From NCBI GenBank assembly GCA_014730235.1, contig WJIO01000108.1:1-33573 (forward strand): a stretch of 33,573 nt of DNA, written 5' to 3'. The translations under genes and the position numbers were made by a program. This DNA comes from Candidatus Poribacteria bacterium (GTDB lineage: Bacteria > Poribacteria > DTPJ01 > WJIO01). The notes beneath the pieces were generated by a model that had not been told where the DNA came from, did no database searches, and worked only from the letters and a program-made list of their open reading frames with translations. Of the stretch, positions 27,832-33,573 are shown one piece after another (the stretch's first letter is position 1; every line of letters begins with the position of its first letter).

Positions 27832-28347
27832 ATGAAATCTGTTTTTTCTGTTATTCTATCAATAATAGTTATTGCTGGATGTGGTTCCTCCACAATGGAT
27901 AATAAAGGTGATAAAATGAATAGGGAAAATACAAAAGAAACTGCTTTTGAAGTAAATAAAACTGAAGAAGAATGGAGAGAAACCCTCACCCTTGAGCAGT
28001 TCTATATACTAAGAGAAAAAGGTACTGAAAGGGCCTTTACCGGAAAGTATTACGATAACAAGAAAAAAGGTTTATATATATGTGCCGGCTGTGAAAACGA
28101 GCTTTTCCATTCTGCTGAAAAATTCGATTCAGGAACCGGTTGGCCCAGTTACTGGGATACAGTATCAGAAAATAGCGTAATTACAAAGCCTGACAACAGT
28201 CTCTTTATGAGAAGAACCGAAGTCGTATGTGCTAGATGCGGCGGTCATCTTGGTCATGTTTTTGAAGATGGTCCTAAGCCAACAGGTTTAAGATATTGTA
28301 TCAATTCTGCTGCATTGAAATTTGAAGAAAATAAAGAAAAACCATAG
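27832..28347 (+). CDS. msrB: Lipoprotein peptide-methionine (R)-S-oxide reductase
   Basis: This 171-residue MsrB reduces methionine-R-sulfoxide in proteins. A lipoprotein signal ends in the lipobox IAGC (Cys17), followed by a polar linker (18-45), so the enzyme should be tethered to the outer face of the inner membrane or to the outer membrane. The catalytic domain (about 46-165) has zinc ligands Cys84, Cys87, Cys133 and Cys136 and catalytic Cys156 in RYCINS. The resolving cysteine position must be supplied by another thiol, since no further free cysteine is evident. Electron supply in the envelope is unknown. It is a single-gene unit between two hairpins. Confidence 0.93.
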   Translation: MKSVFSVILSIIVIAGCGSSTMDNKGDKMNRENTKETAFEVNKTEEEWRETLTLEQFYILREKGTERAFTGKYYDNKKKGLYICAGCENELFHSAEKFDSGTGWPSYWDTVSENSVITKPDNSLFMRRTEVVCARCGGHLGHVFEDGPKPTGLRYCINSAALKFEENKEKP

Positions 28348-28359
28348 AACTCCAAAGAT

Positions 28360-28393
28360 CAACAGCCATCTCTGTATACAGAGATGGCTGTTG
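28360..28393. terminator. Bidirectional hairpin between msrB and the M42 peptidase gene
   Basis: Perfect 15-base arms (28360-28374 and 28379-28393) close on TATA. The two genes converge on it. The flanks are AT-rich but lack a long T-run on either strand. Confidence 0.7.
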
Positions 28394-28414: not shown

Positions 28415-29440
28415 TTATCGAACCAAAACGCCTAATTCATGAGCATTTTCCAGGAATTTAACAAGTAATTTTACTGTAGCTTCTATATCATCTCCATGAG
28501 CAAGCTGGACTGTGGAGTGCATATACCTGGTTGGAGCACCTATAGTAGTGGCCAGCGCGCCTATCCCTGTTCTTTGTATAGCAGACGCATCAGTACCTCC
28601 TCCAATGTTCCTTTGATATGGAATATCATATTTTTCACACAAATCAAAAAGGAATTTCACCAAACGTCTGTCTCCTATTGTTAAGCCATCCATAAGATAT
28701 ATTCCTGTTCCCTGACCCATTGCGCAAATATTGTCAACTTTACTTACATGCGCTCCCCATGTAGGACTGCCGTCAATGGCAATACCCATATCTGGCTTGA
28801 TTGCAAAGGCTGCAATAGGCATACCTCTAACACCTTTTTCCTCCTGTACTGTACTTACTGCATAAACATCAACACAAGTTTCTCCCAGATTCTTTACAGC
28901 TTCCAGCATGCAATATGTACCAAGTCGATCATCGAAATTACGACTCATATATACTTTTTCGTTAAGATATACTAATTCCTGGGCAAAGGTAATAACATCA
29001 CCTACTTCTATCAACTTACGAACTTCATCTCCAGGAAGTCCTGTGTCAATCAACATATCTTTTAAAGCTGGTGTTCTATCACCGCTGGTTGGCACGATAA
29101 CACCATTTACCGATTTCCGACCATGAATAATCACACGCTGAGATACAATGGCCTGGGGATTTAATCCCCCTACAGGTGCAAAACGGATGAACCCATCGCC
29201 GTCAATATGTTTAACCATCATTCCAATTTCGTCTGCATGGGCAGCCAATATAACTCTTAAAGGTTCCTGATTATTATCCTGCTTTCTGGCTTTTTTTAAT
29301 CCTATTACGTTACCCATTCGGTCCCGATAAGCTTCATCACAGTTGGGTTTAAGTATTCCCATTACAAATTCCTGTATGGGATCTTCAAATCCGGGTATAC
29401 CGGGGATATTACATACTTTTTCAAGTAATTCGTTATTCAT
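28415..29440 (-). CDS. M42-family metalloaminopeptidase (glutamyl aminopeptidase/cellulase-M type)
   Basis: This 341-residue cytoplasmic dinuclear-metal peptidase has His68 and Asp70 (AAHADEIG), Asp170 or Asp171 (NFDDR), Glu200/Glu201 (QEEKGVRG), Asp223 (IDG) and His308 (YMHST), the expected metal and catalytic set. GGGTDAS is the family's glycine-rich loop. Members form dodecameric tetrahedral particles that trim peptides. It is the last gene of the long minus-strand block, 23 bases after the glycosyltransferase, and ends at the hairpin 28360-28393. Confidence 0.92.
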   Translation of the reverse strand: MNNELLEKVCNIPGIPGFEDPIQEFVMGILKPNCDEAYRDRMGNVIGLKKARKQDNNQEPLRVILAAHADEIGMMVKHIDGDGFIRFAPVGGLNPQAIVSQRVIIHGRKSVNGVIVPTSGDRTPALKDMLIDTGLPGDEVRKLIEVGDVITFAQELVYLNEKVYMSRNFDDRLGTYCMLEAVKNLGETCVDVYAVSTVQEEKGVRGMPIAAFAIKPDMGIAIDGSPTWGAHVSKVDNICAMGQGTGIYLMDGLTIGDRRLVKFLFDLCEKYDIPYQRNIGGGTDASAIQRTGIGALATTIGAPTRYMHSTVQLAHGDDIEATVKLLVKFLENAHELGVLVR

Positions 29441-30623: not shown

Positions 30624-30794
30624 TCATCCAGAGCGAAGTTTTCTGATCAGGAACATAATACCCATAAATGCAGCAACTACTATGACTATATTGACAACAG
30701 CACCAATTACCCATGATAAGATTTTTAATGCTGCCGCCGCCCCTATAGCGGCTAAAACTGCAATGAGTATTAATATAATTATACTCTTAAGCAT
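30624..30794 (-). CDS. Small two-TM membrane protein, 56 residues
   Basis: An ATG at 30794 preceded by AAGGAG at good distance opens a 56-codon frame ending TGA at 30624. The product is almost entirely hydrophobic: helix 1 about 5-23 with Ala-rich LAAIGAAAA, helix 2 about 27-49, then a basic end RKLRSG. The strong ribosome site, and the position 35 bases after a PspA gene and 29 before the next gene, argue for a real gene. I know of no named family. By analogy with PspB/PspC or LiaI it could anchor or sense for the PspA proteins. Confidence 0.72.
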   Translation of the reverse strand: MLKSIIILILIAVLAAIGAAAALKILSWVIGAVVNIVIVVAAFMGIMFLIRKLRSG

Positions 30795-30829
30795 TGAAAA
30801 AAACTCCTTTTATATGGAAAACAGACAGA

Positions 30830-31495
30830 TCAGTTCTTTTTACGGGCAATCTGGGCTTTAAGTTTTTCAAGCTCATCATCAACATCTTCATCTTCCAGAG
30901 CGGCGAACTTATTTTCAATGGAATTGGCTTCAACTTCGGCGATGGCTTCAGCATTTACTTCCGCTTCCTTTACCCGTCCTTCCATCTTTTCCAGTGCAGT
31001 CAGAGCATTTGATTTTGACATTCCACTTATAGTCTCGCTAATAGCCTTTTGAGCTTTTGCCCTTTTTTGCCGCGCGATAAGCAGGTCTTTACGACGCTTA
31101 GCATCCTCAATTTTGGCTTCAAGGGCTGTTAAGCTAGTTCTAAGAACCTGAACACTCTTGGACTGTTCTTCCAATTGCTCCTTGTAACCCTGAGCTACCT
31201 GTTCGTATGTACGCTTTCTTCTCAATAATTCTTTTGCGGCTACATCATTTCCCTCTTCAACAGCGTTTATAGCCTTAAGCTCGCACCTTTTGACCAGAGC
31301 AAGGTTTTCTTTATATTTTGTTTCTAACTTTTTCTGATCCCTGATAGCAGCAGCGACATGAAGCTTGGCTTCTCTCAAATCCTGCTGCATATCATCCATA
31401 ATTTGCTGGAGTATTTTTTCCGGATCTTCAGCCCGATCCAGAAGCTCACTTATATTTGATCTTATTATTCGGCTTATTCTTTCAAAGACCCCCAT
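30830..31495 (-). CDS. pspA: PspA/IM30 family protein (paralogue 1)
   Basis: This 221-residue protein matches the normal PspA length. N-terminal amphipathic helix MGVFERISRIIRSN is followed by LLDRAEDPEKILQQIM and a long alpha-helical hairpin (about 25-150) rich in Lys, Glu and Arg; this is the ESCRT-III-like fold that polymerises on stressed inner membrane. A linker about 150-205 contains EVEANSIENKF, and the acidic-basic tail ends in ARKKN. AGGAGG precedes the ATG. It follows the DUF151 gene by 50 bases and precedes the small two-TM protein. Its conserved sequence makes it the likely canonical PspA of the cluster. Confidence 0.92.
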   Translation of the reverse strand: MGVFERISRIIRSNISELLDRAEDPEKILQQIMDDMQQDLREAKLHVAAAIRDQKKLETKYKENLALVKRCELKAINAVEEGNDVAAKELLRRKRTYEQVAQGYKEQLEEQSKSVQVLRTSLTALEAKIEDAKRRKDLLIARQKRAKAQKAISETISGMSKSNALTALEKMEGRVKEAEVNAEAIAEVEANSIENKFAALEDEDVDDELEKLKAQIARKKN

Positions 31496-31545
31496 TTTTG
31501 ATTTCCTCCTGTAAAATGGCAGCGGGGTCGGTTAGTTGATTCTTA

Positions 31546-32037
31546 TTACAACTTATTGTTTCCAAAATCTTCAGGTTTCATATTTTCTAGAATTGATTTT
31601 AATTGGCTTTTATCATCATCCTGAACTATATCTGGACTAATTCCAGAATCATCCATTACTTTTTCAGCCACATATATCTTTGCCCCTGTTCTGAGGGCCA
31701 GAGCCATTGCATCGCTTGGTCGTGAATCTATTTTTTTAATTTCATTGTTACCAAGTTTTAAAGTTATCTCAGCAAAAAATATACTGTTATCCAGTTCAGA
31801 AACCAGAACAGATATTACCTCTGCACCTACATTTGTAATAATGGATTTCATCAGGTCATGGGTCATAGGTCTGGTTACGGGTTGTTTTTCTATTTCTGAG
31901 ACAATGGCAAATGCTTCAAAAACCCCAATCCATATAGGTAATAATCTTCTGGGGTTGCCTTGTTTTTCCTTTAATACAACAATAGGAGCTTTTACCTCTG
32001 GATCGAATCTCACCATGGCTATTTCCACTTCAATCAT
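31546..32037 (-). CDS. Bifunctional nuclease domain protein (BFN, DUF151)
   Basis: This 163-residue cytoplasmic protein has the family motifs LPIWIGVFEA (about 33-42), TRPMTHDL (55-62) and IDSRPSDAMALALR (103-116). In plants a member has DNase and RNase activity; in bacteria the role is not settled. The tail (about 125-163) is acidic. TAGGAG precedes the ATG. It sits between two PspA genes, an unusual place for this family. Confidence 0.9.
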   Translation of the reverse strand: MIEVEIAMVRFDPEVKAPIVVLKEKQGNPRRLLPIWIGVFEAFAIVSEIEKQPVTRPMTHDLMKSIITNVGAEVISVLVSELDNSIFFAEITLKLGNNEIKKIDSRPSDAMALALRTGAKIYVAEKVMDDSGISPDIVQDDDKSQLKSILENMKPEDFGNNKL

Positions 32038-32085
32038 TTTGCTCTCCTAAGTATTTTCAGGTTTGTTTTTGCTTTTCATCTGTCA

Positions 32086-32733
32086 TTATGAATTCTCTAC
32101 CTTCATTTTTTCTTTGAGCTTTGCTAACTCATTTTCTAATTCTTCATCTTTTCTTTTGGATAGAACTTGGTTTTCGGAATTCATCTTCGCCAGGGCTTCA
32201 GATTCTGCATCAAGATTCATAATCTTTTTTTTCAGTCTGGCAAAAGTCTCCATTTGTTGGGATATTGGTTTTTTTTGCAGAAGCGAGTTCATACTAGTCC
32301 GATGTTTTCTTGCTATCAACAGGTCTCTTTTCCTTTTAACTTCCTGGATTTTATTTTCAAGAGCAGATAAAGCCGATTTCAGGGAACTGACAACCTGTTT
32401 ATGTAATTCACATTCCTTTTTGTATTCAAGAGTAAGGGCAGCGGCAGAGCGTTTACGAAGTATGGCCTCTCTTGCAAGTTCATCCTTACCATATTGAACC
32501 GCCAGTAATGCCTTTTCCTGCCACTTCTCAGCCAGTTGCTCATTTTCTTTATACAGCATCTCAAGTCTTTTACCTTCTCGGACGGTAGAAGCCATCTGAC
32601 GCCTGGCATCTGTCAGTTCTGATTGTAATTCTGAAAGAAGCTGGCTCAAAGCTCTTTCAGGATTGGATGTATTGTCAAGCAGATCGTTCAGGTTGGCCTT
32701 TAGTATGCTCTCTATTCTTTCTAAAACTCCCAT
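32086..32733 (-). CDS. PspA/IM30 family protein (paralogue 2)
   Basis: With the start used here it has 215 residues: amphipathic start MGVLERIESILKANLNDLL, NPERALSQLL, then a long coiled-coil hairpin to about 150 and a charged tail ending KMKVENS. It differs clearly from paralogue 1 in the second half (for example LLQKKPISQQ), so it is an old duplicate. The frame extends to a TTG at 32748, but the ATG at 32733 has GGAGGG seven bases upstream and lines up with the conserved PspA N-terminus. A promoter is present at 32768-32796. Confidence 0.88.
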   Translation of the reverse strand: MGVLERIESILKANLNDLLDNTSNPERALSQLLSELQSELTDARRQMASTVREGKRLEMLYKENEQLAEKWQEKALLAVQYGKDELAREAILRKRSAAALTLEYKKECELHKQVVSSLKSALSALENKIQEVKRKRDLLIARKHRTSMNSLLQKKPISQQMETFARLKKKIMNLDAESEALAKMNSENQVLSKRKDEELENELAKLKEKMKVENS

Positions 32734-32767
32734 ACCTCTGCCCTCCAATTATTTTCTGCTCTTTCTA

Positions 32768-32796
32768 AGTATATCATAAGAAATTAACTAAAACAA
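32768..32796 (-). promoter_or_regulatory. Candidate promoter of pspA paralogue 2 and downstream genes
   Basis: On the minus strand TTGTTT (32791-32796) and TATACT (32768-32773) are 17 bases apart, with four and five of six consensus bases. The leader would be about 28 bases to the ATG at 32733. Confidence 0.45.
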
Positions 32797-32806
32797 CATT
32801 TAATCA

Positions 32807-33199
32807 TTAATCATCATTACCTAAACCAGCCAATTCTGAAATCAGTTTACCAGCAGCTTTAATATCTTTATTTCTGGCGTTTCTAATAAGATATTTATAT
32901 TGATCAACCTGCATACCCATGCTGGATTGTCCCAGGATTTTATTCATTTTAGATCTGAAAAAGTCTACCTCAGTAATTTGATCAATTGGAACATTTTCCT
33001 TTATATTCACATAAGTCTTACCAAGAGTACCTATGGTTCTCTCGTCCATAACCAATACCCGTCGAGATGTAATAACAACATAGTCCTTTGAAGTCATGGA
33101 CGAGCCGGCTAAGAAGCACATTTTAACATCTTCATCCGGTGACATTTGTTCTAACGCTGCCTTGCGAATGCGTTCGGGCAAACGTTCAAATACGGCCAT
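32807..33199 (-). CDS. Small bacterial PH-domain protein (YokE/bPH-like)
   Basis: This 130-residue cytoplasmic protein has a leading helix (MAVFERLPERIRKAALEQM) followed by a PH-like barrel: VKMCFLAGSS, DYVVITSRRVLVMDERT, YVNIKENVPIDQITEVDFFRS, QSSMGMQV, QYKYLIRNARN, then a C-terminal helix (AAGKLISELAGL). VITSRRVLVMDE is the characteristic second-third strand pair of bacterial PH domains. The role is probably binding protein or lipid at the membrane. It begins 18 bases after the partial PspA gene. Its first residues resemble the PspA membrane-binding helix. Confidence 0.75.
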   Translation of the reverse strand: MAVFERLPERIRKAALEQMSPDEDVKMCFLAGSSMTSKDYVVITSRRVLVMDERTIGTLGKTYVNIKENVPIDQITEVDFFRSKMNKILGQSSMGMQVDQYKYLIRNARNKDIKAAGKLISELAGLGNDD

Positions 33200-33217
33200 T
33201 TACTTACCTCTTCAGGG

Positions 33218-33573
33218 TCAGGTATTCATCTTATCCTTCATGGCTTTTAGCTCTGAATCAACCTTTGATTCTTTTTCCATTTTTCTGAATTCTTCTTCCA
33301 CTTCATCTTTTTTTGCCAGTTCTTCCAGAGCTTCAGCCTGAATTTCAAGAGTTACCACCTTGTCCACCATGCGGTCGTAAGTGTCAAAAGTGCTTATATC
33401 AAGCTCTACATTAGATACCACAGGTCTGGAAATTGGTGTCTGGGAAATTATCTTCCGGGTGTGGGCATGACGCTTAATTAATTCAATCCTCTTTTTATAA
33501 AGGTCATCCAGTTTACTTTCCAGTTCCGTTAATCCTTGTTTAAGTTCCTGAACCGTTTGTTTTTGTCTTTCCA
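33218..33573 (-). CDS. PspA/IM30 family protein (paralogue 3), C-terminal part, runs off the window
   Basis: The frame is open to the right edge; about 117 residues are visible and the N-terminus is missing. The visible part starts in a long helix (ERQKQTVQELKQGLTELE, then SKLDDLYKKRIELIKRHAHTR), as in the second arm of the PspA hairpin. A linker follows with FDTYDRMVDKVVTLEIQAEALEEL, matching the FERMEEKV...EAEAEA region of PspA, and a charged tail. The linker SQTPISRPVVSNVELDIS is less usual. An internal GTG at 33421 is not a likely start because the helix continues upstream. Confidence 0.8.
   Translation of the reverse strand, partial: ERQKQTVQELKQGLTELESKLDDLYKKRIELIKRHAHTRKIISQTPISRPVVSNVELDISTFDTYDRMVDKVVTLEIQAEALEELAKKDEVEEEFRKMEKESKVDSELKAMKDKMNT

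What the first reader, a model, noticed from the sequence alone, without database searches (positions are those of the whole stretch)
30624..33573. Three PspA/ESCRT-III paralogues interleaved with PH-domain, DUF151 and tiny membrane proteins
Genes in minus-strand order are PspA-3 (partial), PH-domain protein, PspA-2, DUF151 nuclease-like protein, PspA-1 and a 56-residue two-TM protein, all with short gaps. Classical Psp loci have one PspA with PspB/PspC/PspF or LiaF/LiaI partners; none of these is visible. Several paralogues could co-polymerise, as eukaryotic ESCRT-III subunits do, with the PH protein and the small membrane protein as recruiters. Cluster content is seen; the joint function is inferred.
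Basis: partly seen in the sequence, partly recalled or inferred. Interest (0 to 1): 0.75.

Follow-up and report, generated by a model that had tools for sequence, protein, structure and literature searches.

The report
Poribacterial paired-PspA membrane-remodelling gene cassette
A gene cluster conserved across one bacterial phylum pairs two anciently diverged relatives of the ESCRT-III membrane-shaping protein PspA with a PH-fold protein, a small membrane protein and (in most relatives) a flotillin, which makes it a natural place to test whether bacteria build mixed ESCRT-III polymers.

Summary
On the minus strand at the end of contig C24 of a Candidatus Poribacteria MAG lie PspA3 (C-terminal half), a PH-fold protein, PspA2, DUF151/BFN, PspA1 and a 56-aa two-TM protein, with gaps of 18-73 bp.

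The window shows a derived form of a phylum-wide cassette: (SmpB)-PspA3-PH-YqiJ-flotillin-DUF151-PspA1-TM56. PH and DUF151 lie within 6 kb in 66 of 68 poribacterial genomes holding both. PspA3 lies beside DUF151 in 13 of 13. The PH family was found in 70 of 84 Poribacteria and 0 of 155 other genomes. PspA1 and PspA3 are two ancient clades. PspA2 is a fast-evolving, window-only copy from the PspA1 lineage. The cassette YqiJ and flotillin were not found in the window genome, and PspA2 sits in their slot. A separate CesT/Tir-PspA locus lies on another contig.

Best reading: an inner-membrane maintenance or remodelling module of the known PspA-SPFH kind, with new partners (PH, DUF151, TM56) and two specialised PspA subunits. 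Mixed polymers are plausible but untested. No paper found describes PspA with PH or DUF151. Family f3 Poribacteria lack these free PspAs at the cassette and carry tandem RDD-PspA fusions elsewhere. New variant of a known kind.

The parts
33218..33571 (-). PspA3, C-terminal half (contig end); divergent PspA paralogue
   Evidence: Pfam PspA_IM30 6.4e-7, 29.6 bits, below the 33.9 cut-off because partial. In the PspA3 clade 99/99, sister to the full-length G001 PspA3 100/96. Contig ends at 33573.
32807..33199 (-). PH-fold protein, 130 aa, no TM segment
   Evidence: bPH_3 0.0015, 19.4 of 23 bits; orthologue 25.7 bits, over cut-off. AF2 pLDDT 90.4, pTM 0.84. Foldseek top hits 3hsa/3dcx bacterial PH, Z about 10. 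Orthologues in 70 of 84 Poribacteria, 0 of 155 outside.
32086..32733 (-). PspA2, 215 aa from ATG 32733; window-only PspA copy
   Evidence: PspA_IM30 3.6e-32. On the stem of the PspA1 clade (96/90), end branch 1.28. AF2 helices 3-21, 25-80, 84-154, 157-214. Foldseek top hits Vipp1/PspA.
31546..32037 (-). DUF151 / bifunctional-nuclease-domain protein, 163 aa
   Evidence: BFN_dom 6.1e-38. Profile matches TM0160 (1sj5/1vjl), 5e-32. Within 6 kb of PH in 66 of 68 genomes.
30830..31495 (-). PspA1, 221 aa, the most PspA/Vipp1-like paralogue of this locus
   Evidence: PspA_IM30 3.2e-47. Full-length matches to solved Vipp1/PspA, 2e-40. PspA1 orthologues in 13 genomes.
30624..30794 (-). TM56, small two-TM protein with basic C-terminus (RKLR)
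   Evidence: No Pfam family over cut-off. Orthologues after PspA1 in f5 and f6 genomes, conserved I/L pattern, W28, K52-L53-R54; also L104, L106-L108.

Best explanation
This is the window lineage's form of a conserved poribacterial inner-membrane maintenance cassette. SHOWN: two ancient, distinct PspA paralogues (PspA1, PspA3) are encoded next to a PH-fold protein, a DUF151 protein and a small two-TM protein. In most relatives holding PspA3 and PH the locus also carries YqiJ, usually with a cassette flotillin. In the window lineage those two were not found and a copy from the PspA1 lineage (PspA2) occupies the slot. INFERRED: PspA1 is the PspA/Vipp1-like subunit that binds stressed or curved inner-leaflet membrane through its N-terminal amphipathic helix and assembles ESCRT-III-like polymers. 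PspA3 is a specialised subunit that seeds, caps or modifies that polymer and is positioned by the PH protein. TM56, and in relatives YqiJ-flotillin, provide the membrane platform, as YdjG/H and the SPFH protein YdjI do for PspA in B. subtilis. PspA2 may compensate for the missing flotillin platform or add a third subunit. DUF151 is probably a regulatory or nucleic-acid-binding partner; its role is the weakest part of the model.
For: Profiles and fold. Conserved order across families f1, f2, f5, f6, f9. Co-localisation counts: PH-DUF151 66/68, PspA3-DUF151 13/13, PspA3-PH 11/11, PH-flotillin 49/54. YqiJ_N 4.5e-13 and Flot/Band_7 beside PH in relatives. Two ancient PspA clades: PspA3 clade 99/99; PspA1 orthologues one group, 82/79; PspA1+PspA2 96/90. 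The LLIAR-type helix-3 motif is present in 13/13 PspA1 and in PspA2 but in 0/13 PspA3, which points to specialisation. All paralogues keep an amphipathic N-terminus. Outside the phylum no PspA-BFN neighbours in 15 sampled genomes with both. Precedent: B. subtilis YdjI (SPFH) with YdjG/H brings PspA to the membrane (PMC8581546); PspA operons with Band-7/flotillin and YqiJ (PMC11237479).
Against: No interaction, expression or localisation data. Co-operon expression is inferred from short gaps; the promoter and terminator scan found no more sites than shuffles. Most f3 genomes keep PH-YqiJ-flotillin-DUF151 without free PspA beside them, so PspA is not obligatory for the rest. f6 genomes keep the PspA pair without PH. 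SmpB also stays next to the cassette in many genomes without any obvious functional link, so synteny alone is not proof of joint function. PspA2 is known from a single MAG.
Confidence: 0.6

Rival explanations
1. The paralogues do not co-assemble. PspA1, PspA2 and PspA3 are subfunctionalised and act as separate homo-oligomers on different membrane signals, sharing only an operon.
For: PspA3 lacks the helix-3 motif present in PspA1, and its orthologues share only 23-30% identity with PspA2. f3 genomes keep the PH-YqiJ-flotillin-DUF151 part without either free PspA.
Against: Where PspA3 exists it is within 6 kb of DUF151 in 13/13, and in all nine gene maps of the first set PspA1 lies within about 5 kb of it, so the pair is inherited together.
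Confidence: 0.35
2. Synteny inertia: neighbouring but functionally unrelated genes kept together by slow rearrangement within one phylum.
For: SmpB also stays next to the cassette in f3, f5 and f6 genomes. In G016, G023 and G067 the PH gene stands away from a DUF151 orthologue.
Against: In G001 the core PspA3-PH-DUF151-PspA1 is intact with quite different upstream genes and no SmpB. Members are lost and gained individually (PH in f6, PspAs in f3, flotillin in f1, f2, f9) while the remaining ones stay adjacent.
Confidence: 0.2
3. PspA2 is a relaxed or decaying duplicate of PspA1 with no distinct role.
For: Long branch 1.28, single genome, highest identity 42% to any PspA.
Against: Intact 215-codon frame, own Shine-Dalgarno-like sequence, PspA_IM30 112 bits, kept LLIAR motif and full helix layout.
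Confidence: 0.3
4. The locus is mainly a nucleic-acid-linked stress response: DUF151 is a nuclease or regulator released or inhibited by the PspA/PH membrane proteins, as PspA holds PspF in E. coli.
For: DUF151 is one of the two most constant members (66/68 with PH). Plant DUF151 proteins have reported nuclease activity (PMC7249048). It is strongly conserved (RPMTHDL, RPSDA motifs).
Against: No regulator or HTH gene seen in the cassette. BFN genes occur in 59 of 80 sampled genomes outside the phylum and were not beside PspA in the 15 that have both, so the link is local.
Confidence: 0.15

Closest known systems
PspA with Band-7/flotillin and YqiJ/YuaF operons (Ravi et al. 2024, PMC11237479)
   Same: PspA-family gene beside a TM-band-7-flotillin protein and a YqiJ-like membrane protein, in Poribacteria of family f5.
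   Different: No CesT/Tir chaperone and no AAA+ ATPase recognised at this locus. Two diverged PspA paralogues instead of one; PH, DUF151 and TM56 are added. The window itself lacks YqiJ and flotillin.
B. subtilis ydjFGHI (PspA, YdjG, YdjH, SPFH protein YdjI; PMC8581546)
   Same: PspA plus integral-membrane helpers plus an SPFH protein that brings PspA to the membrane.
   Different: No YdjG/YdjH-like proteins recognised; two-TM TM56 and a PH protein instead; paralogous PspAs.
Cyanobacterial PspA-Vipp1 dyads/triads (PMC11237479; mixed polymers discussed in PMC13051332)
   Different: The poribacterial pair is separated by PH, YqiJ, flotillin and DUF151; PspA1 and PspA2 are 215-222 aa, too short for the Vipp1 C-terminal extension.
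Classical pspFABC(D) of E. coli
   Same: PspA family only.
   Different: No PspF, PspB or PspC recognised in the cluster.
CesT/Tir-PspA dyad (present elsewhere in the same genome, G000:C294)
   Same: PspA_IM30.
   Different: A separate PspA with CesT_Tir_1 (2.7e-11) and small TM proteins; outside the PspA1 and PspA3 clades.

Membership tests
PspA/IM30 (PF04012) | Score over Pfam gathering cut-off: PspA1 and PspA2 | tested here: met
   161.4 and 112.2 bits against 33.9
PspA/IM30 (PF04012) | Score over Pfam gathering cut-off: PspA3 (window fragment) | tested here: inconclusive
   29.6 bits on a C-terminal half; full-length orthologue in G001 106.5 bits; clade 99/99
ESCRT-III superfamily | Helical layout (N-terminal amphipathic helix, long helix 1-2 hairpin, helices to the C-terminus) shared with solved PspA/Vipp1 | tested here: met
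   PspA2 model, pLDDT 82, pTM 0.52; Foldseek E 2e-8 to Vipp1 7o3w, the top 17 hits all PspA/Vipp1. Overall rmsd is high, so the layout rather than the conformation is matched.
ESCRT-III superfamily | Polymerisation and membrane remodelling | not testable with these tools
   needs purified protein
Classical Psp system (pspFABC) | PspB, PspC or PspF encoded with PspA | tested here: not met
   Pfam scan of all six visible cluster genes and two downstream genes shows none; the flank upstream of PspA3 is lost to the contig end, and relatives' flanks were not profile-scanned in full
PspA-flotillin-YqiJ operons (Ravi 2024) | Flotillin/band-7 and YqiJ beside PspA | tested here: not met
   Met in f5 relatives; not met in the window genome: no YqiJ match at E 1e-3, best flotillin match only 6e-33
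PspA-flotillin-YqiJ operons (Ravi 2024) | CesT/Tir chaperone in the operon | tested here: not met
   Not in the cluster; CesT_Tir_1 lies with another PspA on C294
Bacterial PH (bPH_3, PF14470) | Profile score over cut-off | tested here: not met
   Window protein 19.4 of 23 bits; orthologue L042 25.7 bits, met
PH fold | Seven-strand barrel capped by a C-terminal helix, matching solved PH domains | tested here: met
   AF2 pLDDT 90.4; seven strands of three or more residues then a C-terminal helix; Foldseek 5.5e-5 to 3hsa; Z about 10
BFN/DUF151 (PF02577) | Domain over cut-off | tested here: met
   129.5 against 27 bits
BFN/DUF151 (PF02577) | Nuclease activity | not testable with these tools
   reported for plant members (PMC7249048); needs an assay

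The most novel reading that the evidence does not exclude
A bacterial composite ESCRT-III: PspA1 and PspA3 (plus PspA2 in this lineage) assemble as distinct subunits of one polymer, with a phylum-specific PH-fold adaptor and a two-TM anchor playing the recruiter role that PH/GLUE-domain ESCRT proteins such as Vps36 play in eukaryotes. In family f3 Poribacteria a tandem array of membrane-anchored RDD-PspA fusions stands in for the free subunits.
Probability: 0.25. Interest if true: 0.85.

Novelty: new variant of a known kind. Interest (0 to 1): 0.55.

Why it matters
Whether bacterial ESCRT-III proteins form mixed-subunit polymers is open: a 2026 review raises it as a possibility for cyanobacterial PspA/Vipp1 (PMC13051332). 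This cassette gives pairs of co-inherited, clearly diverged PspA subunits with dedicated partner proteins, so the question can be tested by co-expression in a laboratory E. coli strain. It also adds three partners (a PH-fold protein, DUF151, a two-TM protein); PH domains and DUF151 are not mentioned in the main text of the PSP surveys read here. It links PspA to a PH fold, which in eukaryotes is a common membrane-targeting module.

Tried and rejected
1) 'Three ancient paralogues': rejected. The tree puts PspA2 on the PspA1 stem, and no other poribacterial gene map examined has it in that slot. 2) Names by single-protein scan of genome contigs with PspA2: no confirmed relative; the scan with the PH alignment named the phylum as Candidatus Poribacteria. 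3) Missing N-terminal half of PspA3 on another contig: not found. 4) Window-lineage flotillin/YqiJ elsewhere in the genome: cassette orthologues not found; the MAG is 91.6% complete, so absence is not proven. 5) PH family by profile in solved structures: no sequence match; fold search succeeded instead. 6) VIA hits such as Vps36 PH (Z 9.8), myotubularin and TFIIH p62 are nearly tied and say only 'PH fold'. 7) Promoter/terminator scan: counts at shuffle level. 8) PH protein on plasmids: none.
Full report
OBSERVATION. The minus strand of 30624-33573 carries, in transcription order, PspA3 (partial), a PH-fold protein, PspA2, DUF151, PspA1 and a 56-aa two-TM protein, with gaps of 18, 73, 48, 50 and 35 bp and Shine-Dalgarno-like sequences before the genes. 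Pfam confirms PspA_IM30 for PspA1 (3e-47) and PspA2 (4e-32), BFN/DUF151 (6e-38), and the C-terminal half of a PspA for PspA3 (6e-7). The PH assignment is weak by profile (bPH_3, 0.0015, below cut-off). Downstream lie a group-1 glycosyltransferase and an M42 peptidase. The window is contig C24 of a 5.53-Mb MAG (91.6% complete); the contig stops at 33573, and the missing PspA3 N-terminus is not in the assembly.

ORGANISM. An alignment of the PH protein scanned against named genomes returned ten loci, all Candidatus Poribacteria.

CONSERVED CASSETTE. In relatives of the same phylum the fullest form is SmpB-PspA3-PH-YqiJ-flotillin-DUF151-PspA1-TM56 (L038, L042, L108; similar in L107). Variants are: no flotillin in L037 (G057); no PH in L043/L044; PspA3-PH-DUF151-PspA1 in L045 (G001, same order as the window, whose contig ends before a possible TM56). 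YqiJ and flotillin were identified by Pfam in L042 (YqiJ_N 4.5e-13; Flot 3.7e-20 and Band_7). Phylum-wide searches (84 genomes) and a coordinate comparison give: PH found in 70; PH and DUF151 within 6 kb in 66 of 68 genomes with both; cassette flotillin within 6 kb of PH in 49 of 54; PspA3 within 6 kb of DUF151 in 13 of 13 and of PH in 11 of 11. Outside the phylum the PH family was found in 0 of 155 genomes. In 80 of those genomes, 15 have both PspA and BFN genes by these searches and none has them as neighbours on one contig (the comparison of coordinates is mine). Many of these assemblies are fragmented, so this is a sample, not proof of absence.

PARALOGUES. A 44-row maximum-likelihood tree puts PspA3 orthologues in one clade (99/99) with the window fragment inside it, and PspA1 orthologues in one group (82/79). 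The window's PspA2 joins the PspA1 stem (PspA1+PspA2 96/90) on a long branch (1.28). So the three are two ancient subunits plus one further copy of the PspA1 lineage. The position of a long branch is unsure. PspA2 was seen in no other gene map. It lies between PH and DUF151, which is where YqiJ and flotillin sit in relatives; their cassette orthologues were not found in the window genome or in G001. PspA1 (13 of 13) and PspA2 have an LLIAR-type helix-3 motif that PspA3 lacks (0 of 13), but E. coli PspA also lacks it, so this marks divergence, not loss of function. N-termini of all paralogues remain amphipathic.

STRUCTURE. The PH protein model (27-row alignment, pLDDT 90.4, pTM 0.84) matches bacterial PH domains 3hsa/3dcx best (Foldseek 5e-5) and many PH domains at Z about 9-11. 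These hits establish the fold, not the ligand. The PspA2 model (pLDDT 82, pTM 0.52) has helices 3-21, 25-80, 84-154 and 157-214, and its 17 best PDB matches are all PspA or Vipp1. PspA1 matches solved Vipp1/PspA full length. DUF151 matches TM0160.

SAME GENOME, OTHER PspA. Contig C294 holds a separate PspA next to a CesT_Tir_1 protein (2.7e-11) and two small TM proteins. This is the CesT/Tir-PspA dyad described in PMC11237479.

MECHANISM. Shown: gene content, conservation, fold assignments, paralogue history. From established work: PspA/Vipp1 are ESCRT-III relatives that polymerise, and their N-terminal helix acts as a membrane anchor (PMC13051332). In B. subtilis an SPFH protein with two membrane proteins brings PspA to the membrane (PMC8581546). 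Inferred: the cassette is an inner-membrane maintenance module in which PspA1 is the main polymer-forming subunit, PspA3 a specialised subunit positioned by the PH protein, and TM56 (with YqiJ-flotillin in relatives) the membrane platform. Co-polymerisation is my extrapolation (probability about 0.25-0.35). DUF151's role is open.

NOVELTY. PspA with flotillin and YqiJ is known, and so are adjacent PspA paralogues in cyanobacteria (PMC11237479). The main text of that survey contains no 'PH domain' or 'DUF151', nor does PMC9239133. The literature search found no paper with PspA and DUF151 and none with Poribacteria and PspA. Only open-access papers were searched, and supplements were not read. 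I rate it a new variant of a known kind.

SIDE FINDING. In family f3, PspA1, PspA3 and TM56 are missing from the cassette in the maps examined, while PH, YqiJ and DUF151 remain, with flotillin in most. The same genomes carry ~365-aa RDD-PspA fusions, in runs of two to four in 27 of 39 genomes tallied. The PspA match starts at about profile position 16-23, so the amphipathic helix appears to be replaced by the RDD membrane domain. Full-length fusion matches were listed only in f3. No paper with RDD, PspA, Vipp1 and fusion was found.

Noticed in passing
L046:3122-7844 (+); also L047, L052, L053; rows G020, G034, G046, G021: Tandem runs (two to four copies) of ~365-aa RDD (PF06271) + PspA_IM30 fusions in Poribacteria family f3; the PspA amphipathic helix 0 appears replaced by a multi-TM RDD domain. 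No description found in the papers searched.
   Followed up: partly
L035:6390-8353 (-) = G000:C294: A second, CesT/Tir-PspA type locus in the window's genome: small TM-coiled-coil protein, CesT_Tir_1, PspA, 92-aa two-TM protein.
   Followed up: partly
L098:9396-10302, L112:8696-9605, L113:7146-8111: DUF151 is duplicated in tandem in several f3 genomes of genus g3 (first copy shorter, about 139-152 aa).
   Followed up: no
L097:4890-5351, L098, L099, L104, L042:4070-4555 and others: An SmpB-like gene (recognised by eye) lies just upstream of the cassette in many Poribacteria; it is absent from the upstream flank in G001, so it marks ancestral synteny rather than a functional partner.
   Followed up: partly
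window 28360-28393: Perfect 15-bp inverted repeat CAACAGCCATCTCTG-TATA-CAGAGATGGCTGTTG between convergent genes (MsrB-like at 27832-28347 and M42 peptidase at 28415-29440), probably a bidirectional terminator.
   Followed up: no
G134:C1:5894881-5896687: A genome outside the phylum has two adjacent PspA genes, like the cyanobacterial PspA/Vipp1 dyad.
   Followed up: no
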